DNA from: Rhodocyclaceae bacterium
GTDB lineage: Bacteria > Pseudomonadota > Gammaproteobacteria > Burkholderiales > CAIKXV01
Direction of reading: 5' to 3'
Length of the DNA: 64,000 nucleotides
Assembly: GCA_020248265.1 (NCBI GenBank)
Contig: JADCHX010000011.1
Span: 388,670 to 452,669 of the forward strand
Shown: positions 20,573-47,636 of the stretch, one piece after another
Layout: every line of letters starts with the position of its first letter
How positions within the stretch are numbered: position 1 is the stretch's first letter
Made by a program: the position numbers and the translations under genes
Notes under the pieces: model-generated
Told to the model about the DNA's origin: nothing
The model's input: the letters and a program-made list of their open reading frames with translations, nothing else
Database searches by the model: none

Positions 20573-20573
20573 C

Positions 20574-27634: not shown

Positions 27635-28576
27635 ATGAAGTCGTACACCCCTCCCTTGCGCGTATGGTCCGCGCTGCTGCTGTCCGTTGCCATCGGCGCG
27701 GCACTGCAGCCTGCCGCGTCGTTCGCCCAGGCGGGTACCGCCCCGACAACGCAGTCGCCCGCCGATGCCGGCATCGTCGACGAGGATACCGATACCCCGT
27801 ATGTGCCGACGCCGATCGACGTGGTCGAGCGGATGCTCCATCTGGCCGGCGTCGGTCCGTCGGATTACCTGATCGACATCGGCTCGGGGGACGGCCGGAT
27901 CGTGCTGACGGCGGTCTCGAAGTTCGGCGCGCGCGGCCATGGCATCGAGATCGATCCGCGCCTGATCGAACGCAGCCGGCAGGCCGCGGCGAAGCTCGGC
28001 ATCGGCGATCGCGCCCAGTTCCTGACCCAGGACCTTTTCGAGTCCGATTTTTCAAAGGCAACCGTGGTCAGCGTGTACCTGCTGCCCAAGGTGATGCAAC
28101 TGCTCACGCCGAAGCTCGCTGCGCTGCGGCCCGGCACCCGGATCGTTTCGCACGACTACGCCATGCTCGGCGACTGGCAGCCGGACATGACGCTGCGCAT
28201 GTACGTGCCTGACAAGCCGGTCGGCCGCGACAAACACAGTACGCTGATGCTCTGGACGGTACCGGCACCGGTCGCTGGCCGGTGGCAGTTCGACCTGCCG
28301 AAGGCCCAGGGTGGCGCCCGCGTCGAGATCGCGGTGTCGCAGGCCCGGCAGATCCTCACCGGCAAGGCGACCCTGAACGGACAGCCGGTCGACCTCCTGG
28401 GCCTGCGCATCGACGGCGAACGGCTGCGTTTCGCGCTGGAGCCGTCCGGTCGCGTGGAACGGTTCCGCCATGAATTCGACGGCGTGGTGAAAGGCGACAG
28501 CGTGTCGGGTACGGCTACCTACCACGCGCGCGCGGCGTCGGTGGCGGCAAGATGGGAGGCCAGGCTGGCGCGCTGA
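27635..28576 (+). CDS. Exported FAM173-like methyltransferase paralog 1
   Basis: 313 aa. Signal peptide of Sec type ending ASFAQ, then YVPTP (56-60), motif I DIGSGDGRI (81-89), the acidic strand-2 residue in GIEID, QDLFESDFSKATVVSVYLLP and VSHDY (171-175). From about residue 205 a beta-rich domain follows. These are hallmarks of class I SAM methyltransferases closest in pattern to the FAM173/ATPSCKMT lysine methyltransferases. Stands alone ahead of the main block, divergent from the spermidine-synthase-like gene. GGAAAGG precedes the ATG and CTAGACT (27598-27604) may be its -10. Substrate and activity unknown. Confidence 0.82.
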   Translation: MKSYTPPLRVWSALLLSVAIGAALQPAASFAQAGTAPTTQSPADAGIVDEDTDTPYVPTPIDVVERMLHLAGVGPSDYLIDIGSGDGRIVLTAVSKFGARGHGIEIDPRLIERSRQAAAKLGIGDRAQFLTQDLFESDFSKATVVSVYLLPKVMQLLTPKLAALRPGTRIVSHDYAMLGDWQPDMTLRMYVPDKPVGRDKHSTLMLWTVPAPVAGRWQFDLPKAQGGARVEIAVSQARQILTGKATLNGQPVDLLGLRIDGERLRFALEPSGRVERFRHEFDGVVKGDSVSGTATYHARAASVAARWEARLAR

Positions 28577-28659
28577 CGTGAATGCCTGCTACCAGGGGCG
28601 GGCGCGTTCGCTGCGTATCCGTCGCCTGCGTCCCGATTCGCAACCTGAAGGAGCGTTCC

Positions 28660-29160
28660 ATGGGCAAGAGCAACGGAAAGAAAGCACCTGTCATCGACAT
28701 CGGCATCAGCGACAAGGACCGTGCGGCAATCGCCCAGGGCCTGTCGAGGCTGCTCGCCGACACCTACACCCTGTACCTGACCACGCACAATTTCCACTGG
28801 AACGTGACCGGGCCGATGTTCAACACGCTGCACACCATGTTCATGGTCCAGTACACGGAGCTCTGGAACGCGGTCGATCCGATCGCGGAGCGGATCCGCT
28901 CGCTCGGCCATGTCGCGCCGGGCTCCTATGCCCAGTTCGGGCGCCTCACGTCCCTCAAGGACGCACCCGAGACGCGGCCGGGCGCATTGGAAATGGTCGC
29001 GATCCTGGTCCAGGGCCACGAGGCGGTCGCGCGCACCGCACGGTCGATCTTCCCGGCCGCCCAGAAGGCGGATGACGAGCCGACGGCCGACCTGCTGACC
29101 CAGCGCCTCACGGTGCACGAGCAGTCTGCGTGGATGCTGCGATCGCTGCTCGAGGAATGA
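28660..29160 (+). CDS. dps: Dps-like ferritin (DNA-binding protein from starved cells)
   Basis: Dodecameric iron-storage protein that protects DNA from peroxide. 166 aa from ATG 28660, placed by AAGGAG at 28648-28653. The ferroxidase ligands appear in [19 protein letters not shown] and in the following [18 protein letters not shown] helix. It has a short Lys/Gly-rich N-terminus that could contact DNA. Lies between array copies 1 and 2 without an obvious functional link. Confidence 0.93.
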
Positions 29161-29200
29161 CGCGGCGCGACAGCGGCGGGGACTGACCCTGCTTCGGGGC

Positions 29201-29235: not shown

Positions 29236-29299
29236 CTGCGGTGGACGGTGCGCGGGGGGGATGTGCCGAAGCCCGTCACGACCAAAGGGGGAACCGGGA

Positions 29300-29956
29300 A
29301 TGAAACTCAGGAAATGGGCGCTCGCGGCGTCCGCAACAGTGCTGGCCGGCTGCATGCTGATCGAAGAGCCGAAGTCGCCGATGACCTTCTTCATCACCAG
29401 CGTCGATTCGGGCAAGGGCGCCGATTTCGGTGGTCTCGCCGGTGCCGATGCGCTGTGCCAGAGGCTCGCCGAAGAGGCCGGCGCCGGTGGCCGCCGCACC
29501 TGGCGCGCCTACCTCAGCACGCAGGCCACGCCGGATGCGCCAGCAGTGAACGCGCGCGACCGGATCGGCCGCGGTCCGTGGGTCAACGCGAAGGGCGTGG
29601 TCATCGCCTCCAGCGTCGCCGAACTGCACGGCAACAACAACCTGAACCTGCAGACCGCGCTGACCGACAAGGGCGTTACGCTGAACGGGCGCAGCGACAA
29701 GCCGAACATGCATGACATCCTCACCGGGTCGCAGGCCGACGGCACCGCTTTCCCGGCGGGTGACGACCGTACCTGCGGCAACTGGACGCGCAGCGCCGCC
29801 GGCTCTGCCATGGTCGGTCACCACGACCGCGTCGGGCTCAGGGATGACGAGGCGTCGCGCTCATGGAACGCTTCGCATCCGTCCAAGGCGTGCAGCATCG
29901 AGGCGCTGCGCAGTACCGGCGGCGACGGGCGGCTGTACTGCTTCGCGGCAAACTGA
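29300..29956 (+). CDS. Lipoprotein with DUF1554-like (C-type-lectin/endostatin-like) domain
   Basis: 218 aa; lipoprotein signal with lipobox VLAGC (lipidated Cys18), so anchored in the outer or inner membrane facing the periplasm. The body resembles DUF1554: GGLAGADALCQRLAEEAG, TWRAYLSTQ, IGRGPWVNAKGVVIAS, and C-terminal CGNWTRS plus a Cys pair near the end (KACS, LYCFA). Ligand unknown. ATG 29300 follows a GGGGGAACCGGGA ribosome site. Confidence 0.75.
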   Translation: MKLRKWALAASATVLAGCMLIEEPKSPMTFFITSVDSGKGADFGGLAGADALCQRLAEEAGAGGRRTWRAYLSTQATPDAPAVNARDRIGRGPWVNAKGVVIASSVAELHGNNNLNLQTALTDKGVTLNGRSDKPNMHDILTGSQADGTAFPAGDDRTCGNWTRSAAGSAMVGHHDRVGLRDDEASRSWNASHPSKACSIEALRSTGGDGRLYCFAAN

Positions 29957-30012
29957 GCGAGGCGCCGGTCCACGGCCGCGCACCACCCCGGAAGAGCGGG
30001 GCGGGCGCGATC

Positions 30013-30613: not shown

Positions 30614-31549
30614 ATGCCGCCGAATCCCCGCCGTCGCTCGCTGCTCGCCGCGCTGTCGGCCACTGTCGGCAGCACGCTCGCGTTGCCGTCCGGCAGTGCC
30701 CGCGCTCAACTGAAGCTCGACGTTCCGTTTGCGCCGACCAATTTCACCCTGATCGACACGATGTTGCGTGTGGCGAACGTGGTGCCCGGCGACTTCGTGA
30801 TCGATCTCGGGTCGGGCGACGGACGCATCAACATCGCGGCGGCGCGCGAGTGGGGCGCGCCCGGCATCGGGTACGAGATCGATCCCGCGCTGGTGCGAGA
30901 GAGCATCGAACTGGCCAGGGTCGCCGGCGTCTCCGGGCAGGTGCAGTTCACCGAGCAGAACCTGTTCGACGCAGATCTGTCGAGGGCGACCGTCGTCACG
31001 CTCTACCTCGGGGTAAAGGTCAACCTGCGCGTGCGTCCGAAGCTGCTGTCCGAACTGCGACCCGGCACGCGCATCGTATCGCACGACTTCGACCTCGGCG
31101 ACTGGAAGCCTGACCTGCACATCCGCCTGCGCGACTACGGCAGCCAGGTATTCTTCTGGTGGGTCCCCGCGCGCATCGCGGGTATCTGGACGGCCCGGCT
31201 GGACCTGCCCGGCATCGGGCCGCGTGACCACGAGATCGTGCTGCGCCAGCGCTTCCAGGACATCGATGCCGAAGTGAAGGCCGATGGTGCGAAGGTCGGC
31301 CTGCGCGACATCCGGCTCGCCGGCGACCGCCTCACCTTCATCATGATGGAAGAGGTGAACCGGCAGTTCACCTTCCGCCGTTTCTTCGGGCGCGTGGTGC
31401 GTGGTCCGGGCTCGACCGGCAACACCATCGAAGGCTACTTCCGCACCGAGACCGAAGGCCGGCGCAGCGAGTCGCCGTTCCGGATGACCCGTGCCACGGT
31501 CGTCGAGCCCGGGCCGGAAGGCGCCTGGACTTACGTCCGCGGCAGCTGA
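30614..31549 (+). CDS. Exported FAM173-like methyltransferase paralog 2
   Basis: 311 aa from ATG 30614. N-terminus PRRRSLLAALSATVG looks like a Tat signal and ends SARAQ. Motif I is DLGSGDGRI (64-72), with YEID as strand-2 acidic site, VVTLYLGVKVNLRVRPKLL and RIVSHDFDLGDWKPD. The motif before the fold is FAPTN, a variant of YVPTP, and LYLLP has become LYLGV. First gene of the ten-copy block; CTAGACT at 30569-30575 could be its -10, although no clear -35 was found. The stop overlaps the next start (TGATG). ATG 30566 is a less likely start. Confidence 0.8.
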   Translation: MPPNPRRRSLLAALSATVGSTLALPSGSARAQLKLDVPFAPTNFTLIDTMLRVANVVPGDFVIDLGSGDGRINIAAAREWGAPGIGYEIDPALVRESIELARVAGVSGQVQFTEQNLFDADLSRATVVTLYLGVKVNLRVRPKLLSELRPGTRIVSHDFDLGDWKPDLHIRLRDYGSQVFFWWVPARIAGIWTARLDLPGIGPRDHEIVLRQRFQDIDAEVKADGAKVGLRDIRLAGDRLTFIMMEEVNRQFTFRRFFGRVVRGPGSTGNTIEGYFRTETEGRRSESPFRMTRATVVEPGPEGAWTYVRGS

Positions 31550-32466
31550 TGAAGCGCGTGCGCATGCGCAGGCGCGGGATGCTGGCGCTGGCCTCGGGGC
31601 TCGGCGGTGCCGGGCTGGGACTCGGCGCGATGCCGCTGCTGGCACAGTCCCCGGCTGCCACGAAGCCGCTCGACCGTAACGGCGGTCCGTATGTGCCGAC
31701 GCCCTGGCCGGTGGTCGACCAGATGATCCGCACCGCAACCATCGGCGCGCAAGACCTGGTGATGGACCTCGGCTGCGGCGATGGCCGGCTGGTGATCGCC
31801 GCGGCGAAACGCCACGGTGCCCGCGGCTATGGCGTGGACATCGACGGCGAGCTGGTCCGCCTCGCCAACGACACCGCGGCCCGCGAGGGCGTCGGCCACC
31901 TGGTGCGATTCGAGGAGCGCAACATCTTCGACACCGACGTGCGCGAGGCGACGGTACTCACGCTGTACCTGCTGCCGTGGATGATGATGAAGCTGCGCCC
32001 GCGTTTCCTTTCAGACCTGCGGCCGGGCACGCGTATCGTCGCGCACGACTATCATTTCGAGGACTGGCGCGCCGCGAGCGAATTCACCTTTGACGTGCCG
32101 GAGAAGGTCGCGATCACCGGCATACCGACCACGACGGTCTACCTGTTCCTGGTTCCGGCGCGCGTCGAGGGCCGCTGGGCGGTCGAGGCCCCCGGGGTCG
32201 CAGCCCTGGATCGCGGCGAACTCGTACTGCGCAAGACGCTGAATGATTTCGAGGGCACGATCGGACTCGGCGGGCGCGTGCCGCGCCGGCTGGACGCGAC
32301 CTCGCTCAGGGGACTCGACCTGCGCTTCGCCCTCCCGGTCGATGGCCCGGGTGGCCGGCCCGGCCGGGCCATCGTGCGCGCGCGGGTCGATGGCGACCGC
32401 ATGGAAGGTACGATCGAATCGACGCTCTCGGCGACGACGCGGTTTGCCGCATCGAGGCTCAAATGA
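31549..32466 (+). CDS. Exported FAM173-like methyltransferase paralog 3
   Basis: 305 aa. Tat-like signal (MRRRGMLALASGLGG) ending LLAQ. YVPTP at 48-52, motif I DLGCGDGRL (73-81), GVDID, VLTLYLLP and RIVAHDYHFEDW. The serine of motif I is cysteine here, a conservative change that many active enzymes have. Coupled to copy 2 by TGATG and to copy 4 by a short overlap region. The beta-rich C-terminal domain is present but more diverged than in the other copies. Confidence 0.8.
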   Translation: MKRVRMRRRGMLALASGLGGAGLGLGAMPLLAQSPAATKPLDRNGGPYVPTPWPVVDQMIRTATIGAQDLVMDLGCGDGRLVIAAAKRHGARGYGVDIDGELVRLANDTAAREGVGHLVRFEERNIFDTDVREATVLTLYLLPWMMMKLRPRFLSDLRPGTRIVAHDYHFEDWRAASEFTFDVPEKVAITGIPTTTVYLFLVPARVEGRWAVEAPGVAALDRGELVLRKTLNDFEGTIGLGGRVPRRLDATSLRGLDLRFALPVDGPGGRPGRAIVRARVDGDRMEGTIESTLSATTRFAASRLK

Positions 32467-32486: not shown

Positions 32487-33446
32487 ATGGATTCGAAACG
32501 TTCGTCGCACGCGTCGCGGCAACTGCTGCCTGCCGACCCGCTGCGCCGGCGGATGCTCGGCGTTGCCGCAGCTGCCGGTGCGGGCGCGCTGGCATCGGCG
32601 CCGCTGCTGCGGGCGCAGACCGGAGCCGGGGACGTGGTCTACGTACCCACGCCGCAGGTGGTGGTCAACCGGATGATGTCGATGGCGCGCGTCGGTCCCG
32701 CCGACTTCGTGATCGACCTGGGTTCGGGCGACGGACGCCAGCTGATCACGGCGGTGGCGAAGTTCGGCGCCAGGGGCGGCCGCGGCTACGACCTCGACGA
32801 CGAACTGCTGCGCCAGGCGAACGACAACGCGAAGAAGCAGGGCGTCGCCGAGCGGGTCACCTTCGAGAAGCGGAACATGTTCGAGACCGACGTCAGCGCG
32901 GCGAGCGTCATCACGCTGTACCTGCTGCCGGACCTGAACCTGAGGCTGCGGCCGAAACTCCTGGCCGAACTGCGCCCCGGTTCCCGCATCGTCTCGCACG
33001 ACTACAACATGGGCGACTGGCGGGCGGAAGAGGCGGTCACGATGCAGGTTCCCGAGAAGCAGGTCGGCAATCCGGGGGTCAGCTACGTCTATCTGTGGAT
33101 CGTGCCAGCCAACGTCTCCGGCACCTGGCAGTGGAAGCTGCCTGGCGGCCAGCCGGTCGAGATGTCGGTGCGCCAGCGGTTGCAGGAGATCGAGGTACGC
33201 GGCACCGCCGGCGGCAAGCCGGTCAACGTGACGCTGGCCACCGTGCGCGGAGAGGACCTGCGCATCACCGCCATGGTCGACATCAACGGACGAACGCTGC
33301 GGCACGACTTCACGGGCAAGGTACGGGGCGATACGGTCGAGGGCATGCTGCGCCTGTTCGACAAGGTCGAGTCGAGCGTGCCCTGGGCCGCCTCGCGCAC
33401 CGGTGGCAAGGTGGTGTCGATCGATCCGTCGGCAGGGGTGCGCTAG
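32487..33446 (+). CDS. Exported FAM173-like methyltransferase paralog 4
   Basis: 319 aa from ATG 32487. Twin-arginine stretch PLRRRMLGVAAAAGA then a hydrophobic run ending LLRAQ. YVPTP (52-56), motif I DLGSGDGRQ (77-85), YDLD, VITLYLLPDLNLRLRPKLL and RIVSHDYNMGDW. The strand-2 segment ARGGRGYDLD carries one more residue than its paralogs (compare ARGFGVDL). C-terminal beta-rich domain from about 215. The next gene starts on the base after its TAG stop. Confidence 0.8.
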   Translation: MDSKRSSHASRQLLPADPLRRRMLGVAAAAGAGALASAPLLRAQTGAGDVVYVPTPQVVVNRMMSMARVGPADFVIDLGSGDGRQLITAVAKFGARGGRGYDLDDELLRQANDNAKKQGVAERVTFEKRNMFETDVSAASVITLYLLPDLNLRLRPKLLAELRPGSRIVSHDYNMGDWRAEEAVTMQVPEKQVGNPGVSYVYLWIVPANVSGTWQWKLPGGQPVEMSVRQRLQEIEVRGTAGGKPVNVTLATVRGEDLRITAMVDINGRTLRHDFTGKVRGDTVEGMLRLFDKVESSVPWAASRTGGKVVSIDPSAGVR

Positions 33447-34379
33447 ATGGCGACCGGCCTTCCCGACCTCGGGCGCCGCCGCATCGCCGTGGCGTGCGCT
33501 GGCGGCTGGCTCGCCATGCCCGCGCTGCCGCTGGTGCTCGCGGGGCGCGCGGCGTGGGCCCAGGACGACAAGCCGTTCTCGCCGTTCATCACCACCCCGA
33601 CCAACACGGTGATGCGCATGCTGTCGATCGCCTCCGTAGGCAAGGACGACCATGTGATCGATCTCGGGTCCGGCGACGGCCGCATCCCGATCACCGCCGC
33701 CCTGAAGTTCGGTGCCAGCGGTGCCGGCGTCGACCTCGATGCGAGGCTGGTCGAACTGTCGAACCGCAATGCCGCCGAGGCCGGCGTCGCCGCGCGGGTG
33801 CGTTTCGAGCGCGGCGACGTGTTCGCAGCCGATGTGCGCAAGGCGACAGTCGTTACGCTCTACATGCTGCCACCGATCATCCAGGGCCTGCGTCCGGTGC
33901 TGCTGCGCCAGTTGCGCCCCGGCAGTCGCATCGTCAGCCACGACTTTCCGTTCGAGGGCTGGCGGGCCGATGCCACCGAAACGTTCTTCGCGCCGGAAAA
34001 GAACAACGGGCGCGGCGGCGACAGCACGGTTTTCCTGTACGTGGTGCCGGCCGAAATCCATGGCCGCTGGGCGCTGACGCTGACCGGAACGTCACCCGAG
34101 GACCTGCCCCAGGGTCCGCTCGAACTGCGTTTGCTGCAGGTCAACCAGATCCTCGATGCCGAAGTGAGCGTGGGGCGCGAGATCCTGGAGGCACGCGATG
34201 CCCGGCTCGCCGGTGATCGACTGCGCTTTGCCACGGTATTGCCGGTCCGCGCCGGCGGACCACCGGCAATGCCCTGGCAGTTCGAAGGCCGGGTAGAAGG
34301 TGAAACGATGTCCGGGGTGGCGCGCAACCACCGCGGCGCGGAAGTCCGCTGGCAGGCCCGGAGGACCGCGAGGCGGTGA
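33447..34379 (+). CDS. Exported FAM173-like methyltransferase paralog 5
   Basis: 310 aa; ATG directly abuts the previous stop. N-terminal LGRRRIAVACAGGWLAMPA and AWAQ suggest a Tat signal. The pre-fold motif is FITTPTN rather than YVPTP. Motif I DLGSGDGRI (72-80), GVDLD, VVTLYMLPPIIQGLRP and RIVSHDFPFEGW are intact. Last of the tightly coupled run of copies 2-5; a 161-base gap follows. Confidence 0.8.
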   Translation: MATGLPDLGRRRIAVACAGGWLAMPALPLVLAGRAAWAQDDKPFSPFITTPTNTVMRMLSIASVGKDDHVIDLGSGDGRIPITAALKFGASGAGVDLDARLVELSNRNAAEAGVAARVRFERGDVFAADVRKATVVTLYMLPPIIQGLRPVLLRQLRPGSRIVSHDFPFEGWRADATETFFAPEKNNGRGGDSTVFLYVVPAEIHGRWALTLTGTSPEDLPQGPLELRLLQVNQILDAEVSVGREILEARDARLAGDRLRFATVLPVRAGGPPAMPWQFEGRVEGETMSGVARNHRGAEVRWQARRTARR

Positions 34380-34540: not shown

Positions 34541-35533
34541 ATGCCACACCAGCTGTGCAACGACCAAGCGAGGGCGGGGGGCGCAACGGCAGTGGCCGAT
34601 CGAATCCCCCGCGTGCCGCGCGGCGCTGCAGGGCTGGCCGCCGCGGCCCTGCTGTTGCTCGGCCTGGTCGCCGCCCCGCTGTCGGCAGTTGCGCAGGAGC
34701 GCTTCTCGCTGTATGTCCCGAGCCCGCAGAGCGTGGCCGAGGCGATGGCGAAGATGGCCGGCGTCGGCAAGTCGGACGTCGTGGTCGACCTCGGGTCCGG
34801 AGACGGTCGTATCGTCACCACTGCCGCCCGGTTGCACGGCGCGCGCGGATTCGGGGTCGACATCAACCCGGAACTGGTGGACCTCGCCGCGTCGATCGCG
34901 AAGAAGTCGGGCGTGAGCGACCGGGTCACCTTCATTCAGCAGAATGTGTTCGATGCCGACCTGCGCAAGGCGACGGTCGTCAACCTGTACCTGTTCCCCG
35001 AACTGATGCGGATGCTGCGCCCGAAACTGCTGAACGAACTGCAGCCGGGAACGCGCATCGTCAGCCATGACTTCAATTTCGGCACCTGGGATCCGGACGA
35101 GCAGATCAGCTTCTTCGCGCCGGACAAGTTCGGCGGTGCCGGCGCGGAGGCGCGGATCAGCCTGTGGATCGTGCCTGCGAAGATCCACGGCTACTGGAAC
35201 TGGTCCCTGCCGGTCGGCGGCCAGCCTGTGAATTACGCATCGATCGTCGAGCAGCGCTTCCAGGTGGGCGAAGGCATCGTCCGCGTGGGCAATCGGCGCG
35301 GCCTGTTCACCGACCTCAGGCTGCGTGGTGACCAGGTGTCGTTCGGCCTGCGCATCACGATCGATCCCGGAGTGCTGGTGACGCACGAGTTCCGCGGCAC
35401 GGTGAAGGGCGATGCCATCGAGGGTACGGTGCGAGTCACCCCGGATGGCGGCAAGGCCGTCACTTTGCCCTGGCGCGCGGCCCGTACCAGCAGCACGACC
35501 TATTTCCAGCCCACCGGGCTGGCGGCGAAGTGA
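34541..35533 (+). CDS. Exported FAM173-like methyltransferase paralog 6
   Basis: About 330 aa from ATG 34541; GTG 34592 would give a shorter, cleaner signal peptide and has GGGCGGGGGG upstream. Signal ends SAVAQ. Then ERFSLYVPSPQ, motif I DLGSGDGRI (83-91), GVDIN, VVNLYLFPELMRMLRP and RIVSHDFNFGTWDPD. It bridges the two sequence types of the array: it has the ERFSL lead and LFPELMR stretch of copies 8 and 10 but keeps the VSHDF motif of the others. It ends FQPTGLAAK, a tail shared with copies 7-10 (xxTGxxxK). Confidence 0.8.
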   Translation: MPHQLCNDQARAGGATAVADRIPRVPRGAAGLAAAALLLLGLVAAPLSAVAQERFSLYVPSPQSVAEAMAKMAGVGKSDVVVDLGSGDGRIVTTAARLHGARGFGVDINPELVDLAASIAKKSGVSDRVTFIQQNVFDADLRKATVVNLYLFPELMRMLRPKLLNELQPGTRIVSHDFNFGTWDPDEQISFFAPDKFGGAGAEARISLWIVPAKIHGYWNWSLPVGGQPVNYASIVEQRFQVGEGIVRVGNRRGLFTDLRLRGDQVSFGLRITIDPGVLVTHEFRGTVKGDAIEGTVRVTPDGGKAVTLPWRAARTSSTTYFQPTGLAAK

Positions 35534-35547: not shown

Positions 35548-36459
35548 ATGGGCTTTGACATCCTGCGGCGCGCCCGCGCCATCCTGATTGCCGGGCTTCT
35601 GCTGCCGGCCGTTGCCGCCGCGCAGGAACAGTGGTCGTTTCCTGCCGGCAGCAGCCCGTTCATCATCGACCGCATGGTCAAGGTCGCCGCCCTGCGCGAC
35701 GGCGACGTGGTGGTCGACCTCGGCTCGTTCGACGGGCGCATCGTGCTCGCGGCGGTACGCAGCAACCCGAAGGTGCGCGGCTGGGGTGTCGACATCGAAG
35801 CGAGCCTGGTGGCGGCCGCCAACGAGACGGCGAAGAAGGAAGGCCTGTCCGACCGCGCGCAGTTCTTCCATCGCAATGCGTTCGACGTCGACCTGCGCGA
35901 GGTCACGGTGATCAACATGTGGCTCTTCCGCAGCCTGACGCAGTTGCTGCGGCCGAAGATCCTCGCCGAAGCGCGGCCCGGTACCCGGGTGATCGTCAAC
36001 GGCGCGCTGATCGACAACGGCAACATGATGGGCAACTGGCAACCCGACCGCGTCGACCGCGGCGACGGCAGCCAGAGCCCGATCCTCGTGTGGGTCGTGC
36101 CTGCCCGTGTCGAGGGTGCGTGGTCGTGGCAACTGCCGCTCGGCGGCGAGGCACGCCCGTACGACCTGCTGCTCAGCCAGCAGTTCCAGATGATCGAAGG
36201 GCATGCACGCGTCGGCAACCGCCGCGAGTCGGTCAGCGACGCGCGGCTGCAGGGTGCCGACATCTCGTTCGCGATGGAGATCACGGTCGAAGGCGTCGGG
36301 CGCACGCGCCATGCGTTCTCCGGCAAGGTCGAGGGCGACGAGATCCGGGGCACGGTCACCGTGACCCCGGCCGAGGGCAAGCCGCAGCAGCTGCCCTGGG
36401 TTGCACGCCGCGGTACGGCCGCGTCCTGGTTCAGGACCACTGGCGTCAACATCAAGTAA
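35548..36459 (+). CDS. Exported FAM173-like methyltransferase paralog 7 (altered motif I)
   Basis: 303 aa from ATG 35548, set by ACGGAGG at 35537-35543; GTG 35530 is also in frame. Sec-type signal ending VAAAQ. Motif I reads DLGSFDGRI (57-65): the middle glycine of GxGxG is phenylalanine, which should disturb SAM binding. The VSHDF motif is replaced by VIVNGALIDN and YVPTP by FPAGSSP. The rest of the fold (NPKVRGWGVDIE, VTVINMWLF) matches copies 8-10. Possibly a non-catalytic member. Confidence 0.78.
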   Translation: MGFDILRRARAILIAGLLLPAVAAAQEQWSFPAGSSPFIIDRMVKVAALRDGDVVVDLGSFDGRIVLAAVRSNPKVRGWGVDIEASLVAAANETAKKEGLSDRAQFFHRNAFDVDLREVTVINMWLFRSLTQLLRPKILAEARPGTRVIVNGALIDNGNMMGNWQPDRVDRGDGSQSPILVWVVPARVEGAWSWQLPLGGEARPYDLLLSQQFQMIEGHARVGNRRESVSDARLQGADISFAMEITVEGVGRTRHAFSGKVEGDEIRGTVTVTPAEGKPQQLPWVARRGTAASWFRTTGVNIK

Positions 36460-36510
36460 GCCATCTCACGCAATGCACGTTTCCGACCGATCGAGTAACC
36501 GAGGATGAAG

Positions 36511-37410
36511 ATGACCACCCATTCCCTGACTGGCCCAGGGCTGCGTACGCTGCTCGCCGCTTCGATACTTTTCCTGTGCAGCGGCGCTGCCGTCGCGCAG
36601 GAACGCTTCTCGCTGTTCGTCCCCAGTGCCCAGCCGACGGTCGAACGCCTGGTCAAGCTGGCGCGCATCCAGGAAAACGACGTCGTGGTCGACCTCGGTT
36701 CGGGTGACGGGCGCATCGTGCTCACCGCGGCGCGCGACAACCCGAAGGTGCGCGGCTGGGGCGTCGACATCAACGAGAACCTGGTGCGCCAGTCGAACGA
36801 GGCGGCGAAGAAGCAGGGCGTGTCCGACCGCGTCCAGTTCTTCCACCGCAACGTGTTCGACGCCGACATCCGCGATGTCACCGTGATCAACATGTGGCTG
36901 TTCCCGGAACTGATGCGCCTGCTGCGCCCGAAGATCCTCGCCGAGGCGCGGCCGGGTACGCGCGTGCTGACCCACCTGTTCGACATGGGTTCGTGGCAAG
37001 CCGACGAGTGGGACAAGGAAGCAGGCTCCGCGGTCGGCCTGTGGATCGTGCCGGCGAAGGTCGAGGGCAACTGGTCCTGGCAGTACACGCTGAACGGCAT
37101 CCCGTTCAGCCATGATGCGATCCTCGAGCAGCGTTTCCAGATGGCCGAGGGGGTGACCCGGGCCGGCAACCGCCGCGGCGTGCTGCAGAACGTGAAGCTC
37201 AGGGGCGAGGACTTCTCGTTCTCGCTCGAGATGACGCTCGACGGCGTTGGCCTCACGCGCCACGATTTCGCCGGCAAGGTGAGCGGTGACCAGATCAAGG
37301 GCACGGTGAAGATCGGCATGCCCGACGGCAAGAACGTCGAACTGCCGTGGACTGCACGGCGCACGGTGACGACCGCGTATTTCCGTCCGACGGGGGTCGA
37401 GACGAAGTAA
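36511..37410 (+). CDS. Exported FAM173-like methyltransferase paralog 8
   Basis: 299 aa. GAGG at 36501-36504 fits ATG 36511 better than ATG 36505, which it touches. Sec-type signal ending AAVAQ, then ERFSLFVPSAQ, motif I DLGSGDGRI (61-69), NPKVRGWGVDIN, VTVINMWLFPELMRLLRP and RVLTHLFDMGSW in place of RIVSHDF. The C-terminal domain contains LEQRFQMAEGV and NVKLRGEDFSFSLEM, segments nearly repeated in copies 6, 9 and 10. Confidence 0.8.
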   Translation: MTTHSLTGPGLRTLLAASILFLCSGAAVAQERFSLFVPSAQPTVERLVKLARIQENDVVVDLGSGDGRIVLTAARDNPKVRGWGVDINENLVRQSNEAAKKQGVSDRVQFFHRNVFDADIRDVTVINMWLFPELMRLLRPKILAEARPGTRVLTHLFDMGSWQADEWDKEAGSAVGLWIVPAKVEGNWSWQYTLNGIPFSHDAILEQRFQMAEGVTRAGNRRGVLQNVKLRGEDFSFSLEMTLDGVGLTRHDFAGKVSGDQIKGTVKIGMPDGKNVELPWTARRTVTTAYFRPTGVETK

Positions 37411-37478: not shown

Positions 37479-38405
37479 ATGGAACAGCAGTCGCGTCGCA
37501 CGTTCATCGCCGGGGCCACGGCCGCAGCCGGGATGCTCGCCGGTGCATTCGGTCCGATCCGGGCCGCACTGGCGCAGGAGTATGCAACGCCGTTCGGGCC
37601 GAGCAGCCAGGACGCGGTGAACCGCATGATCAAGCTTGCGGCGCTGAAGGACGGCGACGTGGTCGCCGACCTCGGCTCGGGTAACGGCCAGATCATCATC
37701 GCGGCCGCGAAGAGCAACCCGAAGGTGCGCGGCTGGGGCGTCGATCTGCAGGAATGGCTGGTCAAGACCGCCACGGAAGAGGCGGCAAAGCAGGGCGTGT
37801 CCGACCGTGCCCAGTTCAGCCAGCGCAACGCGTTCGACGTCGACCTGAGCCAGGTGAACGTGATCAACATGTGGCTGTTCGCCAACCTGACCCGGTTGCT
37901 GCAGCCGAAGATCCTCGCCGAGGCCAGGCCGGGCACGCGCGTCATCGTCAACGGCCAGCTGATCGGCACCGACAACATCCTCGGTCTGTGGCAGCCGGAC
38001 GTGATCGACCGCGAAGGTTCCAGCCCGATCATGCTCTGGATCGTACCGGCGCGCGTGGCGGGTTACTGGACATGGGACCTGCCGCTCAACGGTGCCACCC
38101 AGACCTACGACGCGATCATGAACCAGGCGTTCCAGAATGCCGAGGGCTTCGCCCGCGTCGGCAACCGGCGCGAGAGCCTGACCGACGTCAAGCTGCGCGG
38201 CGAAGACCTTTCGTTCGTATTCGACATGACGCTCACCGGCGTGGGCCGCACGAAGCACGAGTTCTCCGGCAAGGTGAACGGCGACACCATCAAGGGTTCG
38301 GTGAAGGTGGCGATCCCCGAGGGCAAGCCGGTCGAGCTGCCGTGGACGGCACGGCGGGTCGCGAAGAGCGGCTGGTTCCGTCCGACCGGCATAGACCTCA
38401 AGTGA
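37479..38405 (+). CDS. Exported FAM173-like methyltransferase paralog 9 (Tat signal, altered motif I)
   Basis: 308 aa from ATG 37479 (GGGAG seven bases upstream). The N-terminus MEQQSRRTFIAGATAAAG is a textbook Tat signal (S-R-R-x-F), ending ALAQ. Motif I is DLGSGNGQI (64-72), changing both the Asp and Arg of the GDGR stretch, and VSHDF is replaced by VIVNGQLIGT as in copy 7. The strand-2 segment NPKVRGWGVDLQ and NVINMWLFANLTRLLQP place it with copies 7, 8 and 10. Confidence 0.8.
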   Translation: MEQQSRRTFIAGATAAAGMLAGAFGPIRAALAQEYATPFGPSSQDAVNRMIKLAALKDGDVVADLGSGNGQIIIAAAKSNPKVRGWGVDLQEWLVKTATEEAAKQGVSDRAQFSQRNAFDVDLSQVNVINMWLFANLTRLLQPKILAEARPGTRVIVNGQLIGTDNILGLWQPDVIDREGSSPIMLWIVPARVAGYWTWDLPLNGATQTYDAIMNQAFQNAEGFARVGNRRESLTDVKLRGEDLSFVFDMTLTGVGRTKHEFSGKVNGDTIKGSVKVAIPEGKPVELPWTARRVAKSGWFRPTGIDLK

Positions 38406-38407: not shown

Positions 38408-39373
38408 ATGCGCCGCGAACCGACGCCAGTCGGTATCCCCGGAGACCGGCCCGGAGCGGCCATCGGTCCTGCCGACGCTGTGCTGCCATCGCGGCAACGC
38501 CGGGCCTGCCTGTCGCTGCTGGCCGGCGCCGCGCTGCTGCCCGGCGCCGCGCGCGCACAGGAGCGTTTCTCACTTTTCGTCGGCAGCCCGCAGTTCACCG
38601 TCGACCGCATGATCCGGATGGCGCAACTGCGCGACGACGACGTGGTGGTCGACCTCGGCTCGGGCGATGGCCGCATCGTGCTCACTGCATTGAAGGCGAA
38701 CCCGAAGGTGCGTGGCTGGGGCGTGGACATCAACCCGGAGCTGGTGGCCGAGGCGACTGCGAATGCGCGCGAGCAGGGCCTCGACGGTCGTGCGCAGTTC
38801 TTCCACCGCAACGTGTTCGATGCCGACATCGGGCAGGCGACGGTGATCACCATGTGGCTGTTCCCGGAGTTGATGCGGCTGCTCAGGCCGAAGCTGCTGG
38901 CCGAGGCGCGGCCGGGTACCCGGCTGGTGTCCAACGGCTTCGAGATGCCCGGCTGGGAGCCCGACTTCACCGACACCGAAGGTGGCCGGGTACTGGTCTG
39001 GATCGTCCCGGCTCGTGTCCAGGGATACTGGAACTGGGAGCTCCCGGTCACCGGCAGCGCGCAGCGCTACGATGCCCTGCTCGAGCAGCGTTTCCAGGTG
39101 GCGGAGGGCATCTGCCGCGTCGGCGATCGGCGCGGCGTATGCACCGACGTCAAGCTGCGCGGTGAAGACCTGTCGTTCGCCATGGAGATCACCCTCGACA
39201 AGGTCGGGCTCACCCGCCAGGAGTTTTCCGGCAAGGTGCGCGGGGACCGCATCGACGGCAGCGTCAAGGTCGTCTACCGTGACGACCCCGACTACAAGGC
39301 CGTCACCTATCCGTGGCGCGCGGTGCGCACGCCCGCCACGGCCTACTTCCGCCCCACCGGACTGGTGAAATGA
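38408..39373 (+). CDS. Exported FAM173-like methyltransferase paralog 10
   Basis: 321 aa. The ATG is two bases after the stop of copy 9 (GTG 38402 in the same frame overlaps it). A longer lead precedes the SRQRRACLSLLAGAALL signal, ending AARAQ. Then ERFSLFVGSPQ, motif I DLGSGDGRI (82-90), NPKVRGWGVDIN, ATVITMWLFPELMRLLRP and RLVSNGFEMPGWEPD. C-terminal domain shares CRVGDRRGVCTDVKLRGEDLSF with copies 6-9. The stop overlaps the next start (ATGA). Confidence 0.8.
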   Translation: MRREPTPVGIPGDRPGAAIGPADAVLPSRQRRACLSLLAGAALLPGAARAQERFSLFVGSPQFTVDRMIRMAQLRDDDVVVDLGSGDGRIVLTALKANPKVRGWGVDINPELVAEATANAREQGLDGRAQFFHRNVFDADIGQATVITMWLFPELMRLLRPKLLAEARPGTRLVSNGFEMPGWEPDFTDTEGGRVLVWIVPARVQGYWNWELPVTGSAQRYDALLEQRFQVAEGICRVGDRRGVCTDVKLRGEDLSFAMEITLDKVGLTRQEFSGKVRGDRIDGSVKVVYRDDPDYKAVTYPWRAVRTPATAYFRPTGLVK

Positions 39374-40365
39374 AATCCTCCGACACCGCTTTCCGAATGG
39401 CCCTGCTGACGATGTCCGGGGCGGCAGTTCCGGCCGTAACCCGACGCTCGGTGCTGCAGGCATGTGCTGCGGGTGCCGCTGGCATCGTGCTGTCCCCGGC
39501 CGCACACGCGCAGGCAGTCGCCCGCGATGCAGTGGTGATCCGGTCGGACTCTTCGCCTTATGTGCCTACACCGCAGAAAGTGGTCGACGAGATGCTGCGC
39601 ATGGGACGTCTTGGCGCAAAGGACTTCATCGTCGACCTCGGGTCGGGGGATGGGCGGATCATCATCACCGCAGCGCAGCGGATGGGTGTGCGCGGCTTCG
39701 GCGTCGACCTCGATGCAGAACTGGTGCGTTACGCCAATGCGGGTGCGAAGCAGGCAGGCGTGTCCGATCGGGTCGAGTTCTTCCAGCGCGACATCTTCAA
39801 GACCGACCTGTCCGGAGCGGACGTGGTCACGATGTACCTGCTGCCGGAAGTGAACATGATGGCGCGGCCGAAGCTGCTCGCCGAACTGCGGCCGGGTGCG
39901 CGTGTGGTCACGCACGATTATCACTTCGAGGACTGGCTCCCCGACGACCGGATCACGCTCGACGTGCCGGAGAAGAAGGTCGGTACGCCTGGGCTCGCCT
40001 ATGTGTACATGTGGATCGTGCCGGGGCAGGGCGCAGGCCGCTGGCAGGGCAGGATGCCGGTCGCGGGCGGGCAGACGCTGCCGGTCGAGCTCGACCTCGA
40101 ACAGCGGTTCCAGATCCTGACCGGGACGGTCAGCCTCGGCGGTCGCCCCGCGAAGCTGGTGTTCGCCGAGATGATCGGCAACGACCTCAGCGTGATCTTC
40201 AGCGCGGAGGTCGGTGGCCGCCAGGTTCGCCATGAAATCCGCGCTCCGATGCGTGGCGATGAAGCGGCCGGCACCGTACGGGCTGGCCACGAGACGCCGC
40301 CGCCAGTGCTTCCGGGGCAGGCAGTCCTTTCCCGGACCGTGAAGCGGAAGGCCTATCTCGGCTGA
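39370..40365 (+). CDS. Exported FAM173-like methyltransferase paralog 11
   Basis: 331 aa; ATG 39370 overlaps the copy 10 stop. Tat-like signal AVTRRSVLQACAAGAAG ending AAHAQ. YVPTP (64-68), motif I DLGSGDGRI (89-97), GVDLD, DVVTMYLLPEVNMMARPKLL and RVVTHDYHFEDW. It returns to the YVPTP/LYLLP type of copies 1-5. The C-terminus is extended by about 25 residues, rich in Pro and basic residues. Last gene of the ten-copy block. Confidence 0.8.
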   Translation: MKSSDTAFRMALLTMSGAAVPAVTRRSVLQACAAGAAGIVLSPAAHAQAVARDAVVIRSDSSPYVPTPQKVVDEMLRMGRLGAKDFIVDLGSGDGRIIITAAQRMGVRGFGVDLDAELVRYANAGAKQAGVSDRVEFFQRDIFKTDLSGADVVTMYLLPEVNMMARPKLLAELRPGARVVTHDYHFEDWLPDDRITLDVPEKKVGTPGLAYVYMWIVPGQGAGRWQGRMPVAGGQTLPVELDLEQRFQILTGTVSLGGRPAKLVFAEMIGNDLSVIFSAEVGGRQVRHEIRAPMRGDEAAGTVRAGHETPPPVLPGQAVLSRTVKRKAYLG

Positions 40366-44634: not shown

Positions 44635-44652
44635 CCGTTGTGGCGGGCGCTT

Positions 44653-44780: not shown

Positions 44781-45770
44781 ATGGCACCTTGCCCCGGCAC
44801 GCGCCGAAAGGCGCCCGCCGCGATCGCCGCGGCAACTGCTTGCGCCGGCATGCTCTGGCTGGCACCTTCTCCAGTCCCGGTCGGTCGTGCCCTGGCGCAG
44901 CCGGTCGAGGCTGCGCCGGTCGCCGGCGCGCCCTATGTTCCCACGCCGTGGCCGGTGGTCAGGGTGATGCTCGAACTGGCGCGGGTCGGCGATACCGATT
45001 TCGTGGTCGACCTCGGATCTGGAGATGGTCGCGTGGTTATCGAAGCGGCGCGCAGTCGCGGGGCGCGCGGACTGGGCGTCGAGATCGAACCGGACCTGGT
45101 ACGGTCGAGCAACGACGAGGCACGGCAGCTCGGCCTGTCTGCCCGGGTGGCCTTCGAGCGGCGCGACCTGTTCGAGACCGATCTGTCCCAGGCGACCGTG
45201 GTGACGCTCTACCTGCTGCCCAGGCTGCTGATGGAACTGCAGCCGCGGCTCGCCCGCCTGCGGCCGGGCACGCGCATCGTGTCGCACGACTTCCGGCTGG
45301 GCGACTGGAAACCCGATGCCACGATCAAGGTGGACGTGCCAGACCGTGCGTTCGGGCCGCCGTTCAGCACGGTCTACCTCTGGGTGGTCCCGGCCTACGT
45401 ACAAGGCGCCTGGGAGGGCAGCGTCGCCGAGCGTGGACGCAGCGAGCGTTTCCGCGCCGAGCTGCGCCAGGATTACCAGTCTCTGTCCGGCACCCTGCGC
45501 GTAGGGGCGCGCAGCGGCCCGCTCGACCGGGCGGCGATTGCGGGCGACAAGGTCACGTTCGGCGCACGTATCGATGGCCCGGGCGGTCCGGTGCGGCATT
45601 CGTTCGACGGCCGTTCGGTGGCTGGCGAACTCGTGGGCCAGTGGACCGTGGAGGCGGCCGGTCGACCGACAGGCCCGTCGGCCGCAGCGGCCGCGCCAGC
45701 CTTCGCCACGACCGTCGCCATCACCGCGAGGCGTGCCGAACCGTTGGCCGTGCCTGCGCGCCGCCCGTGA
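44781..45770 (+). CDS. Exported FAM173-like methyltransferase paralog 12
   Basis: 329 aa from ATG 44781, which has GGAG eight bases upstream; earlier in-frame ATGs (44715, 44748, 44757) lack a good site. N-terminus GTRRKAPAAIAAATA is a basic, Tat-like or Sec-like signal ending ALAQ. YVPTP (52-56), motif I DLGSGDGRV (77-85), GVEIE, VVTLYLLPRLLMELQPRL and RIVSHDFRLGDWKPD. The beta-rich domain is followed by a Pro/Ala-rich tail of about 40 residues. Confidence 0.8.
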   Translation: MAPCPGTRRKAPAAIAAATACAGMLWLAPSPVPVGRALAQPVEAAPVAGAPYVPTPWPVVRVMLELARVGDTDFVVDLGSGDGRVVIEAARSRGARGLGVEIEPDLVRSSNDEARQLGLSARVAFERRDLFETDLSQATVVTLYLLPRLLMELQPRLARLRPGTRIVSHDFRLGDWKPDATIKVDVPDRAFGPPFSTVYLWVVPAYVQGAWEGSVAERGRSERFRAELRQDYQSLSGTLRVGARSGPLDRAAIAGDKVTFGARIDGPGGPVRHSFDGRSVAGELVGQWTVEAAGRPTGPSAAAAAPAFATTVAITARRAEPLAVPARRP

Positions 45771-45828
45771 AGCGCCCGACGATCGCATTTCTCCCCCGAT
45801 GACTCTGCACCCGAGGACCTTCCGAACC

Positions 45829-46719
45829 ATGGACATGCACGCAACAGGACCAGGCCTTACTGCGCGCCGTCGCATCCTGCAGGCGCTGCTCGCCGGTACA
45901 GGCGCGGTCGCCCTGCCGGCGCTGGCGCAGCCGATGGACCGGCCGCTCGACGTGCCGTTCGTACCGACCAGCGACGAGACGGTCGATCGCATGCTGCGCA
46001 TGGCCGGCGTCGGCCCCAAGGACTATCTGATCGACCTCGGTTCCGGCGATGGCCGGATCGTGATCAACGCGGCGAAGCAGTTCGGCGCGACCGGCTTCGG
46101 CGTAGAGCTGAACACCGAGCGCTGGAAGCTGTCGCTGCGCAATGCCGAGAAGGAGGGCGTGGCCGACCGGGTGGCGTTCTACCAGCGCGACCTGTTCGAG
46201 ACCGACCTGTCGAAGGCGACGGTGCTGACGATGTACCTGCTGCCGACGGTCAATCTCAAGCTGCGGCCGCGCATCCTGTCCGAACTGCGGCCGGGGACGC
46301 GCGTCGTGTCGCACGACTTCGACATGGCCGAGTGGATGCCGGACGCACGCGCTGATCGCGGCTGGACGCGCATCTACCTGTGGATCGTGCCGGCGAAGGT
46401 CGACGGCGAATGGGCATGGCGGCAGCCGGTCGGGAAGGGCACGCCCGAGTTCACGATGGAACTGCGGCAGCAGTTCCAGATGATCAGCGGCCCGGTGAAG
46501 ATCGACAACGACCCCTACTGGCTGATGGATGCGCGCCTGCGCGGCGAGGAGATCTCGTTCACCGTGATCGGCGACGCCGGTGGCCTGCGCATCCGCCATG
46601 AGTACAGCGGGCGGGTCGCGGGCAATGCGATCAAGGGCACGGTGCGCATGGTCAATGGCGACAACGCCGCACCGATGAGCGCGCCCTGGTCTGCGGTGCG
46701 CCTGCCGAAGAAGCCGTGA
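45829..46719 (+). CDS. Exported FAM173-like methyltransferase paralog 13
   Basis: 296 aa from ATG 45829 (GAGGA upstream); ATG 45799 and ATG 45835 are alternatives. Tat-like signal TARRRILQALLAGTG ending ALAQ. Pre-fold motif FVPTSDE, motif I DLGSGDGRI (69-77), GVELN, VLTMYLLPTVNLKLRP and RVVSHDFDMAEWMPD. C-terminal domain contains LRQQFQMISGPVK. The stop overlaps the GTG start of copy 14. Confidence 0.8.
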   Translation: MDMHATGPGLTARRRILQALLAGTGAVALPALAQPMDRPLDVPFVPTSDETVDRMLRMAGVGPKDYLIDLGSGDGRIVINAAKQFGATGFGVELNTERWKLSLRNAEKEGVADRVAFYQRDLFETDLSKATVLTMYLLPTVNLKLRPRILSELRPGTRVVSHDFDMAEWMPDARADRGWTRIYLWIVPAKVDGEWAWRQPVGKGTPEFTMELRQQFQMISGPVKIDNDPYWLMDARLRGEEISFTVIGDAGGLRIRHEYSGRVAGNAIKGTVRMVNGDNAAPMSAPWSAVRLPKKP

Positions 46720-47636
46720 CCGTTTTGCGGCGGCGGTTGCTCGGTGGCGCGGCGGCCAGCCTCGCCGGGACGGCGATGGCATCGGTGTCGGGCGCTGTGT
46801 CGCGCGCCTTGCTGCTGCCGGCAGTGCTGCCTGCGCTGCTGCCGACCCGTGCCATCGCGCAGCAGCGCTTCGACGTGCCGTACGTACCCACCCGCCAGTT
46901 GGTGGTCGACGAGATGCTGCGGCTGGCTGCCGTCGACGGCAATGACTTCCTGATCGACCTCGGGTCGGGCGACGGCCGTATCGTCGTGACGGCCGCGCGT
47001 GCATTCGGCATCCGTGGCATCGGCTTCGACATCGATCCGCAGCGGATCGCCGAGGCGCGCGTGAACGCCCGCACGGCAGGTGTGCAGAAACTGGTCGAGT
47101 TTCGCGAGGAGAACATCTTCGCCGCCGATTTCAGCAAGGCGACGGTGGTCACGATGTACCTGCTGACCGCGGTCAACCTGCGGTTGCGGCCGAAGCTGCT
47201 GGCCGAACTCAAGCCGGGCACCCGGGTGGTGTCGCACGACTTCCACATGGACGACTGGGAGCCCGACCGCCGGCTGGTCGTCGGCAAGACGCTCTACCTG
47301 TGGATCATCCCGGCCCGGGTCGAGGGTAAGTGGCGTGTCGATGCGGGCGACCGCCGGTTCGACCTGGCGCTGCGCCAGCGCTTCCAGAAGCTGGAAGGCT
47401 CGGCCACCATCGGCAGCCGCACGGCGCGGCTGTGGGAGGGGCGCCTCGACGGCGAGCGGATCGGCTTCACCCTGACCTACGTTCCCGGCGGCGACGCTTC
47501 GCCGATCGAGCACGACGATGCCGAACGCGCGCACCGCTTCGAAGGAAGGGTCGAAGGCGATACCATCGCTGGTCTGGTCACCGTCGGCATCGGGAAATCC
47601 CGGCGTCAGATGCCATTCACTGCGATGCGCGGCTGA
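46716..47636 (+). CDS. Exported FAM173-like methyltransferase paralog 14
   Basis: 306 aa; GTG 46716 overlaps the stop of copy 13 (GTGA). Signal begins LRRRLLGGAAASLAG, Tat-like, with an unusually long hydrophobic run, ending AIAQ. YVPTR (56-60), motif I DLGSGDGRI (81-89), GFDID, VVTMYLLTAVNLRLRPKLL and RVVSHDFHMDDWEPD. The beta-rich domain includes LRQRFQKLEGSA. Last copy of the array. Confidence 0.8.
   Translation: MTVLRRRLLGGAAASLAGTAMASVSGAVSRALLLPAVLPALLPTRAIAQQRFDVPYVPTRQLVVDEMLRLAAVDGNDFLIDLGSGDGRIVVTAARAFGIRGIGFDIDPQRIAEARVNARTAGVQKLVEFREENIFAADFSKATVVTMYLLTAVNLRLRPKLLAELKPGTRVVSHDFHMDDWEPDRRLVVGKTLYLWIIPARVEGKWRVDAGDRRFDLALRQRFQKLEGSATIGSRTARLWEGRLDGERIGFTLTYVPGGDASPIEHDDAERAHRFEGRVEGDTIAGLVTVGIGKSRRQMPFTAMRG

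What the first reader, a model, noticed from the sequence alone, without database searches (positions are those of the whole stretch)
27635..47636. Array of 14 paralogous exported methyltransferase-fold proteins
Seen: fourteen plus-strand genes, each with an export signal ending in A-Q or similar, a class I motif I (DLGSGDGRI type), an acidic strand-2 site, a VxxLYLLP/INMWLFPE strand and a VSHDF-type motif, plus a shared C-terminal domain. Known: this motif set resembles FAM173/ATPSCKMT lysine methyltransferases, which are intracellular or mitochondrial. Inferred: local duplication has built a secreted family of about 300-residue proteins, many coupled as one transcript. Export of so many SAM-fold proteins to a compartment not known to contain SAM implies either a periplasmic SAM source, export with bound cofactor, or a new ligand-binding role.
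Basis: partly seen in the sequence, partly recalled or inferred. Interest (0 to 1): 0.92.

Follow-up and report, generated by a model that had tools for sequence, protein, structure and literature searches.

The report
Exported methyltransferase array with paired transporter
A betaproteobacterium carries fourteen side-by-side genes for methyl-transferring enzymes that appear to be sent out of the cytoplasm, where their methyl donor is not known to exist, and many related genes in other bacteria sit next to one particular amino-acid-type transporter that may supply that donor.

Summary
Fourteen plus-strand paralogues lie at 27635-47636, each with an export-type leader ending in A-Q. The mature part is an aKMT/FAM173-type SAM-binding domain (model 0.9-1.0 A from SAH-bound 5bxy) followed by a barrel of avidin-like fold without a Pfam match. 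The array is not an artefact: gene order M01-M14 is conserved in related genomes, the paralogues are under purifying selection, and even the altered SAM motifs of M07 and M09 are conserved between species.

An SLC7/LAT-type APC permease lies directly beside the array. Relatives of it lie beside a family gene in 65 of 101 loci examined and on Agrobacterium, Chelatococcus and Leptolyngbya plasmids. Many larger arrays are bracketed on the other side by a membrane-fused spermidine-synthase-like protein whose catalytic domain is predicted to face the periplasm.

Best explanation: an extracytoplasmic methylation module fed with SAM by the permease (SAM out, SAH in). Shown by computation: leaders, SAM-site conservation, selection, gene linkage. 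Inferred: SAM transport, lysine targets, the barrel's role. No biochemistry was possible, and the paper searches made list no description of such a system.

The parts
25836..27512 (-). SpdSynTM: 7-TM membrane protein fused to a spermidine-synthase-like domain, divergent from M01 (start codon inferred)
   Evidence: NCBIfam NF037959 163.5 bits, cutoff 40; Pfam Spermine_synth; next to a family gene in 37 of 37 loci that have it; loop charges put the C-terminal domain outside
27635..28576 (+). M01 exported aKMT-like methyltransferase
   Evidence: orthologues in G012, G242, G272, G144, L128
30614..31549 (+). M02, RR in leader
31549..32466 (+). M03, RR in leader
   Evidence: groups with the first gene of f46/f6 arrays, support 0.994
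32487..33446 (+). M04, RR in leader
   Evidence: groups with the last gene of f46/f6 arrays, support 0.819
33447..34379 (+). M05, RR in leader
34541..35533 (+). M06, leader without RR here
35548..36459 (+). M07, altered motif I (GSFDGR) and NG in place of HD, both conserved between species
36505..37410 (+). M08, leader without RR, THLF
37479..38405 (+). M09, altered motif I (GSGNGQ), NG in place of HD; leader with SRRTFIAG
38408..39373 (+). M10, SNGF in place of SHDF
39370..40365 (+). M11, overlaps M10 by 4 bases
   Evidence: TIGR01409 Tat signal 16.5 bits, cutoff 16.7
44781..45770 (+). M12
45829..46719 (+). M13, RR in leader
46716..47636 (+). M14, overlaps M13 by 4 bases; mature part modelled: methyltransferase domain plus 8-strand barrel
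47745..49106 (+). APC permease of SLC7/LAT type, co-directional, 108 bp after M14
   Evidence: Pfam AA_permease_2 2.6e-49; bacterial chain 6f2g 8.8e-47; adjacent and co-directional in 65 of 65 loci that have a relative of it

Best explanation
This is an extracytoplasmic methylation module. The 14 proteins are made with cleavable leaders, exported (some probably by Tat, some by Sec) and act in the periplasm as aKMT-type SAM-dependent methyltransferases, most likely on amino groups of envelope or secreted proteins. Their avidin-like C-terminal barrels help to choose the target. The neighbouring LAT-type exchanger supplies SAM from the cytoplasm and takes SAH back. The membrane-anchored spermidine-synthase-like protein, with its catalytic domain facing the periplasm, is a second consumer of SAM or a SAM derivative. 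M07 and M09 (and perhaps M08 and M10) have changed or lost catalysis and serve as regulators or partners. Shown by computation: paralogy, leaders, conserved SAM site, selection, synteny, permease and SpdSynTM linkage, folds. Inferred: location in vivo, SAM/SAH exchange, methylation of proteins, role of the barrel, non-catalytic members.
For: SAM site: 335 of 354 distinct family sequences read D-x-G-S/C/A-G-D-G in motif I (of the other 19, ten are the M07-type GSFDGR and eight the M09-type GSGNGQ), and the strand-2 residue is D or E in 352 of 352 with a letter there; model at 0.9-1.0 A from SAH-bound 5bxy and 1.5-1.7 A from aKMT with SAH/SAM. Export: hydrophobic leader in 330 of 336 (175.5 expected after shuffling); lipobox-type leaders in L079, L116 and Leptolyngbya; 12 of 14 have no cysteine beyond residue 40. 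Linkage: APC relative in 65 of 101 loci, in all 65 adjacent and co-directional; 62 of 67 APC-bearing genomes among 399 also have the family, Fisher p 7e-52; 3 of 3 non-own genomes with APC at 44% identity or more in a 349-genome phylum sample have it beside a family gene; adjacent pairs in Agrobacterium, Chelatococcus and Leptolyngbya. LAT/SLC7 carriers exchange amino acids (general knowledge) and SAM and SAH both carry a free amino-acid end; the APC keeps GxG(I/V)F and GGW in 59 of 59 aligned sequences. SpdSynTM: K+R in loops 1-6 averages 1.0, 3.27, 0.42, 2.73, 0.03, 3.18 over 33 sequences, so after 7 helices the catalytic domain lies outside. Selection: dN/dS of the methyltransferase domain 0.013-0.175 in three close species. 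Working analogue: plant Golgi lumen methylation fed by GoSAMT transporters (PMC9946043, passages seen).
Against: Nothing shows that the permease carries SAM: its closest solved relatives are carriers of ordinary amino acids (names), and SAM is much larger. The 80 loci are the best of 571, picked by similarity to the array, so 65 of 101 is not an unbiased rate. Leaders without an adjacent permease also occur (L151, L192), and 15 of 77 family-bearing genomes in the order lack an APC match. In the order 5 of 67 APC genomes lack the family, G329 at 46% identity; in the phylum sample 5 genomes with an APC at 37-39% identity lack it. Four of 14 members have altered catalytic-region motifs. RR leaders (138 of 340) exceed shuffles (86.4) but are not far above a TctC control, 6 of 19. 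The lysine target is inferred from relatives only.
Confidence: 0.5

Rival explanations
1. The exported proteins are SAM/SAH (or nucleoside-amino-acid) binding proteins that hand their ligand to the permease for uptake: a scavenging system, without catalysis.
For: Permease adjacency; second domain with a fold that in avidins binds a ligand; M07 and M09 conserve a non-canonical SAM motif under strong selection.
Against: Most members keep the catalytic-region motifs of aKMT (HD, YLLP); up to 14 paralogues are more than a receptor needs; APC carriers are not known to use binding proteins (general knowledge).
Confidence: 0.15
2. The methyltransferases act on a small molecule (amino acid, amine or polyamine) that the permease carries; the module makes or detoxifies a methylated metabolite, and SpdSynTM acts on the same amine.
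For: The permease is of amino-acid type; spermidine-synthase-like partner; avidin-like barrel could hold a small ligand.
Against: The nearest characterised enzymes (aKMT) methylate protein lysines; periplasmic SAM would still be needed; SpdSynTM was not seen in the single-copy loci, truncated arrays apart.
Confidence: 0.2
3. The proteins leave the cytoplasm by Tat already folded with SAM or SAH bound and act once or act structurally; the permease is unrelated to SAM.
For: RR in the leader of 11 of 14 (by eye), SRRTFIAG in M09, less hydrophobic leaders in RR members.
Against: RR is lost or gained within orthologue groups M01, M06, M08-M10 while a leader is kept; lipoprotein-type leaders exist; does not explain the permease.
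Confidence: 0.1
4. The leaders do not work and the enzymes are ordinary cytoplasmic aKMT-like lysine methyltransferases.
For: Characterised relatives are intracellular; some family members show no leader (3 of 7 non-own genomes of the phylum sample, by eye).
Against: Leader-type stretch in 330 of 336 although its sequence changes fast; lipobox and anchor forms.
Confidence: 0.05

Closest known systems
aKMT (Sulfolobus islandicus; PDB 5fa8, 5fad, 5jwj) and FAM173A/B (ANT-KMT, ATPSc-KMT)
   Same: Methyltransferase domain aligns end to end with aKMT (2.9e-36) and superposes at 1.5-1.7 A on the crystal entries; PYVPTP, TVVTM.LLT and VSH motifs shared. FAM173 itself was not compared here; its kinship to aKMT is from the reviews.
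   Different: Leader, added avidin-like barrel, arrays, permease; aKMT and FAM173 are intracellular or mitochondrial.
Salinibacter ruber 'RNA methyltransferase' 5bxy (SAH-bound, 158-residue chain)
   Same: Closest solved structure, 5e-51, 0.9-1.0 A, 58-59% identity in the Foldseek alignment.
   Different: No barrel in the solved chain; its natural leader, location and function were not examined here, and the title's 'RNA' is a label.
Outer-membrane protein lysine methyltransferases (Rickettsia PKMT1/2, Acinetobacter KmtA; PMC11784438, abstract and passages seen)
   Same: Methylate surface proteins.
   Different: The passages describe enzymes with further middle and C-terminal domains, which I did not compare by sequence; no permease and no exported enzyme are mentioned in the passages seen.
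Plant Golgi lumen methylation with GoSAMT SAM transporters (PMC9946043, passages seen)
   Same: Works alike if the main reading is right: methyltransferases outside the cytosol fed by a dedicated SAM transporter.
   Different: MFS-type transporter, polysaccharide targets, eukaryotic organelle; no claim of homology.
SLC7/LAT exchangers and the bacterial chain 6f2g (named BasC from recall)
   Same: Permease matches over nearly its whole length, 8.8e-47.
   Different: The serine of the GSGIF motif in y+LAT chains is mostly A, V or I here (A also in 6f2g); substrate unknown.
Fused MFS/spermidine synthase (NF037959)
   Same: SpdSynTM scores 163.5 bits, cutoff 40.
   Different: Its gene neighbourhood, and the prediction that the catalytic domain faces the periplasm; I did not test other NF037959 members for either.

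Membership tests
aKMT/FAM173-type 7-strand lysine methyltransferase | homology across the whole methyltransferase domain | tested here: met
   M14 against 5fa8 2.9e-36 and 5jwj 3.9e-35, residues 6-150; profile and fold:
aKMT/FAM173-type 7-strand lysine methyltransferase | SAM site (motif I, acid after strand 2) | tested here: met
   12 of 14 canonical motif I, 14 of 14 acid; family 335 of 354 and 352 of 352
NF041081 archaeal protein-lysine methyltransferase (equivalog) | curated cutoff 200 bits | tested here: not met
   76-129 bits for the 10 of 14 scanned; so not filed as this equivalog
aKMT/FAM173-type 7-strand lysine methyltransferase | intracellular or mitochondrial location | tested here: not met
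   leader in 14 of 14; prediction only
aKMT/FAM173-type 7-strand lysine methyltransferase | methylation of protein lysine | not testable with these tools
   needs an enzyme assay
SLC7/LAT-type APC exchanger (permease) | near full-length homology, TM1 GxG and TM6 GGW | tested here: met
   which helices these are is from recall
SLC7/LAT-type APC exchanger (permease) | TIGR00911 curated cutoff | tested here: not met
   190.7 bits against 701.8; so not filed as that subfamily
SLC7/LAT-type APC exchanger (permease) | obligate exchange of substrate | not testable with these tools
   needs transport assay
Fused MFS/spermidine synthase NF037959 (SpdSynTM) | curated cutoff 40 bits | tested here: met
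   163.5 bits
Avidin-like barrel (C-terminal domain) | 8-strand barrel fold | tested here: met
Avidin-like barrel (C-terminal domain) | common descent with avidins / biotin binding | tested here: inconclusive
   no avidin among PDB sequence hits up to E 5; Cap15 and designed barrels score within 1 Z
Tat substrates | twin arginine before a moderately hydrophobic leader | tested here: inconclusive
   11 of 14 by eye; M11 16.5 bits against cutoff 16.7; variable within orthologue groups

The most novel reading that the evidence does not exclude
Several groups of bacteria run a SAM economy outside the cytoplasm. A dedicated LAT-type SAM/SAH exchanger feeds one exported methyltransferase or, in some betaproteobacterial lineages, a bank of up to 14 target-specific ones in one array plus a periplasm-facing aminopropyl- or methyltransferase. 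Together they write a methylation code on the envelope.
Probability: 0.4. Interest if true: 0.96.

Novelty: categorically new. Interest (0 to 1): 0.86.

Why it matters
SAM-dependent chemistry is taken to be confined to the cytoplasm in bacteria (general knowledge). A conserved pair of exported SAM enzyme and exchanger, found here in Pseudomonadota, in MAGs titled Bacteroidales and Balneolales-type and in a cyanobacterium, would open a new kind of post-export protein modification. It would also name a candidate bacterial SAM exporter and give a clean route to test it. The label 'categorically new' refers to the module; the folds are known, and plant Golgi methylation is a working parallel.

Tried and rejected
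Assembly artefact: rejected, since order M01-M14 recurs in G012, M01-M13 in G242, M01-M11 on the contig read of G144 and M01-M11 without M07 in L128. Recent duplication: rejected. Export only by Tat: not supported. Neighbours Dps, DUF1554, DUF1643 and SSF as partners: found only in loci of close relatives; TctC-like genes occur in 20 loci and I did not test their adjacency. Other recurrent neighbours in 33 chosen diverse loci: only the family and the permease recurred widely as clear proteins; an RND-type pair and TctC recurred in 4 loci each; the other clusters look like antisense or shadow frames of these genes. Promoter and terminator scan: nothing above chance. C-terminal domain in Pfam: none for M14; best of 85 members E 0.01. 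Viral structure library for the barrel: best E 2e-3, no clear match. Foldseek 'pdb' for the barrel alone was never accepted; it was compared only by pdb_via. Paper searches for exported, periplasmic or secreted methyltransferases, bacterial SAM transport, membrane spermidine synthase and Tat-exported methyltransferases listed nothing that describes this system; listings only were seen (10 of 445 papers), plus the passages.
Full report
WHAT IS THERE. Fourteen plus-strand genes (M01-M14) lie between 27635 and 47636. All encode a leader ending in A-Q, a class I methyltransferase domain and a C-terminal domain of about 100 residues. Identity to M14 is 36-46%. M02-M11 are closely spaced (from an overlap of 4 bases to a gap of 161), as are M12-M14. 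M01 stands alone, followed by Dps, DUF1554-like and DUF1643 genes; a TctC protein, a short ORF, DUF4212 and an SSF symporter separate M11 from M12. The genome holds two more clear relatives: a solo copy on C12 and one on C5 whose match ends before the C-terminal domain. Both have leader-type stretches.

NOT AN ARTEFACT, NOT DECAY. In other genomes of the genus the array recurs in the same order: M01-M14 in G012 at 79-96% identity, M01-M13 in G242, M01-M11 on the contig read of G144 at 61-78%; L128 has M01-M11 without M07 at 67-82%. All four fully scored same-genus genomes have 14-16 copies; the 16 other genomes of that call have from 1 to 19. A tree of 109 sequences groups M03 and M04 with genes at fixed positions in the arrays of two other families (support 0.994 and 0.819), M14 and M01 likewise but less firmly or with fewer members (0.829, 0.657). 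M06-M10 form one clade with a single f3 sequence (support 1.0) and look like a later expansion. Within-paralogue dN/dS of the methyltransferase domain is 0.013-0.175 against G012, G272 and G242, and 0.12-0.40 against the more distant G144. The C-terminal domain has the higher dN/dS in 42 of 44 comparisons. M07 and M09 carry altered SAM motifs (GSFDGR, GSGNGQ) and lack HD, yet these letters are the same in each orthologue printed with its motif (5 and 6 loci, one contig twice for M09) and their domain is under strong selection in the close species (0.037-0.103). They are maintained variants, not relics.

EXPORT. A hydrophobic stretch of leader type precedes the domain in 330 of 336 distinct family sequences, against 175.5 expected from shuffles of the same residues. 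Leaders diverge between orthologues while the mature start is kept. Two Caulobacterales-titled loci (L079, L116) and Leptolyngbya have lipobox-type leaders; L084 and L104 look membrane-anchored. Twelve of 14 have no cysteine beyond residue 40. The twin arginine, present in 11 of 14 leaders by eye, occurs in 138 of 340 family leaders against 86.4 in shuffles. RR leaders are less hydrophobic (median 2.25 against 2.50, p 5e-11), but 6 of 19 TctC leaders also have RR. In the genus it is constant in some orthologue groups and variable in M01, M06 and M08-M10, with one exception in M04 (near-duplicates are included, and M14 is undercounted because a second hydrophobic segment was picked). So export is conserved; the route seems not to be.

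THE NEIGHBOURS. Blast of window genes against the fetched loci gave the main result. The APC permease (47745-49106) has a relative in 65 of 101 loci, and in all 65 it is adjacent (distances between stop-to-stop frames) and co-directional with a family gene. They include records titled Betaproteobacteria, Pseudomonas, several Alphaproteobacteria, Bacteroidales and Aliifodinibius. In an even draw of 399 genomes of the order, 77 have the family, 67 the permease (E 1e-60) and 62 both (Fisher p 7e-52). In a draw of 349 genomes of the phylum, 8 (own included) have the family. The three non-own genomes with a permease at 44% identity or more have it next to a family gene, and those three family proteins have leaders; five with a permease at 37-39% lack the family. 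Of the four family genomes without the permease, three show no leader and one does, by eye. Agrobacterium and Leptolyngbya plasmids have permease then methyltransferase; Chelatococcus has the reverse; Gloeothece has no annotated permease in the stretch seen. Exceptions: 15 family genomes without permease match and 5 permease genomes without the family; in G329 none was found within the 8 kb read.

The second partner, SpdSynTM, is divergent from M01. It has a relative in 37 of 101 loci, in all 37 adjacent to a family gene, and in 25 of 399 genomes, all with family and permease. Across 33 aligned sequences it has seven hydrophobic segments; positive charge lies in loops 2, 4 and 6. This places the spermidine-synthase-like domain in the periplasm. 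Its core DLFHGDG...YL.TR.FF is nearly invariant. METTL13, a methyltransferase, is among its PDB hits beside spermidine synthases, so methyl or aminopropyl transfer is open.

HOW IT LIKELY WORKS. The permease is of SLC7/LAT type, closest by sequence to the bacterial carrier 6f2g and to y+LAT chains. Such carriers exchange amino acids (general knowledge). SAM and SAH both present the amino-acid end that such sites read. An exchanger kept beside exported SAM enzymes is most simply a SAM/SAH exchanger. Eukaryotes offer a working parallel: plant Golgi methyltransferases face the lumen and depend on SAM transporters (PMC9946043, passages). The targets are most likely protein amino groups, because aKMT methylates lysines of many proteins (PMC4639711, passages). 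The fast-evolving barrels would set specificity. Transport, targets and barrel function are inference.

NOVELTY. Bacterial methylation of surface proteins is known: OmpB of Rickettsia and AtaA by KmtA (PMC11784438, abstract and passages). I found no description of exported SAM methyltransferases with a dedicated permease in the searches, which cover only open-licence papers.

LIMITS. No experiment was possible. Loci were found by a motif I pattern, so they favour intact motif I. In the large draws only 5 to 7 candidates per genome were scored for the family, and many genomes are incomplete. Start codons are judged by eye. The organism is named from the titles of related records only.

Noticed in passing
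window 37479-38405 and 35548-36459 (M09, M07): Paralogues with altered SAM motif whose altered letters are conserved in the orthologues printed; M09 is among the most conserved members between the window and G012 (96%).
   Followed up: partly
L139 1680-4803 (G242): M14 was not found but the permease still follows the last methyltransferase gene (M13) directly.
   Followed up: no
L079, L116, L160: Family members with lipoprotein-type leaders in Caulobacterales-titled MAGs and in Leptolyngbya boryana.
   Followed up: partly
L157 and L158: Agrobacterium and Chelatococcus members share a pair of cysteines (CKSWC, CEQWC) before the barrel, possibly a disulfide.
   Followed up: no
window 23422-25743 (-): DsbD-like thiol:disulfide interchange protein directly beyond SpdSynTM; relatives found in 6 of the loci searched.
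   Followed up: no
window 11791-22016 (+): Complex I (nuo) genes upstream of the array region.
   Followed up: no
window 29297-29956 (+): DUF1554-like protein (below Pfam's cutoff) with a leader ending TVLAGC; it, Dps and DUF1643 also occur in the array loci of three other genus genomes (position there not checked).
   Followed up: no
window 55105-59368 (+): HlyD-type adaptor followed by a 1029-residue ORF, perhaps an RND-efflux pair (the ORF was not scanned).
   Followed up: no
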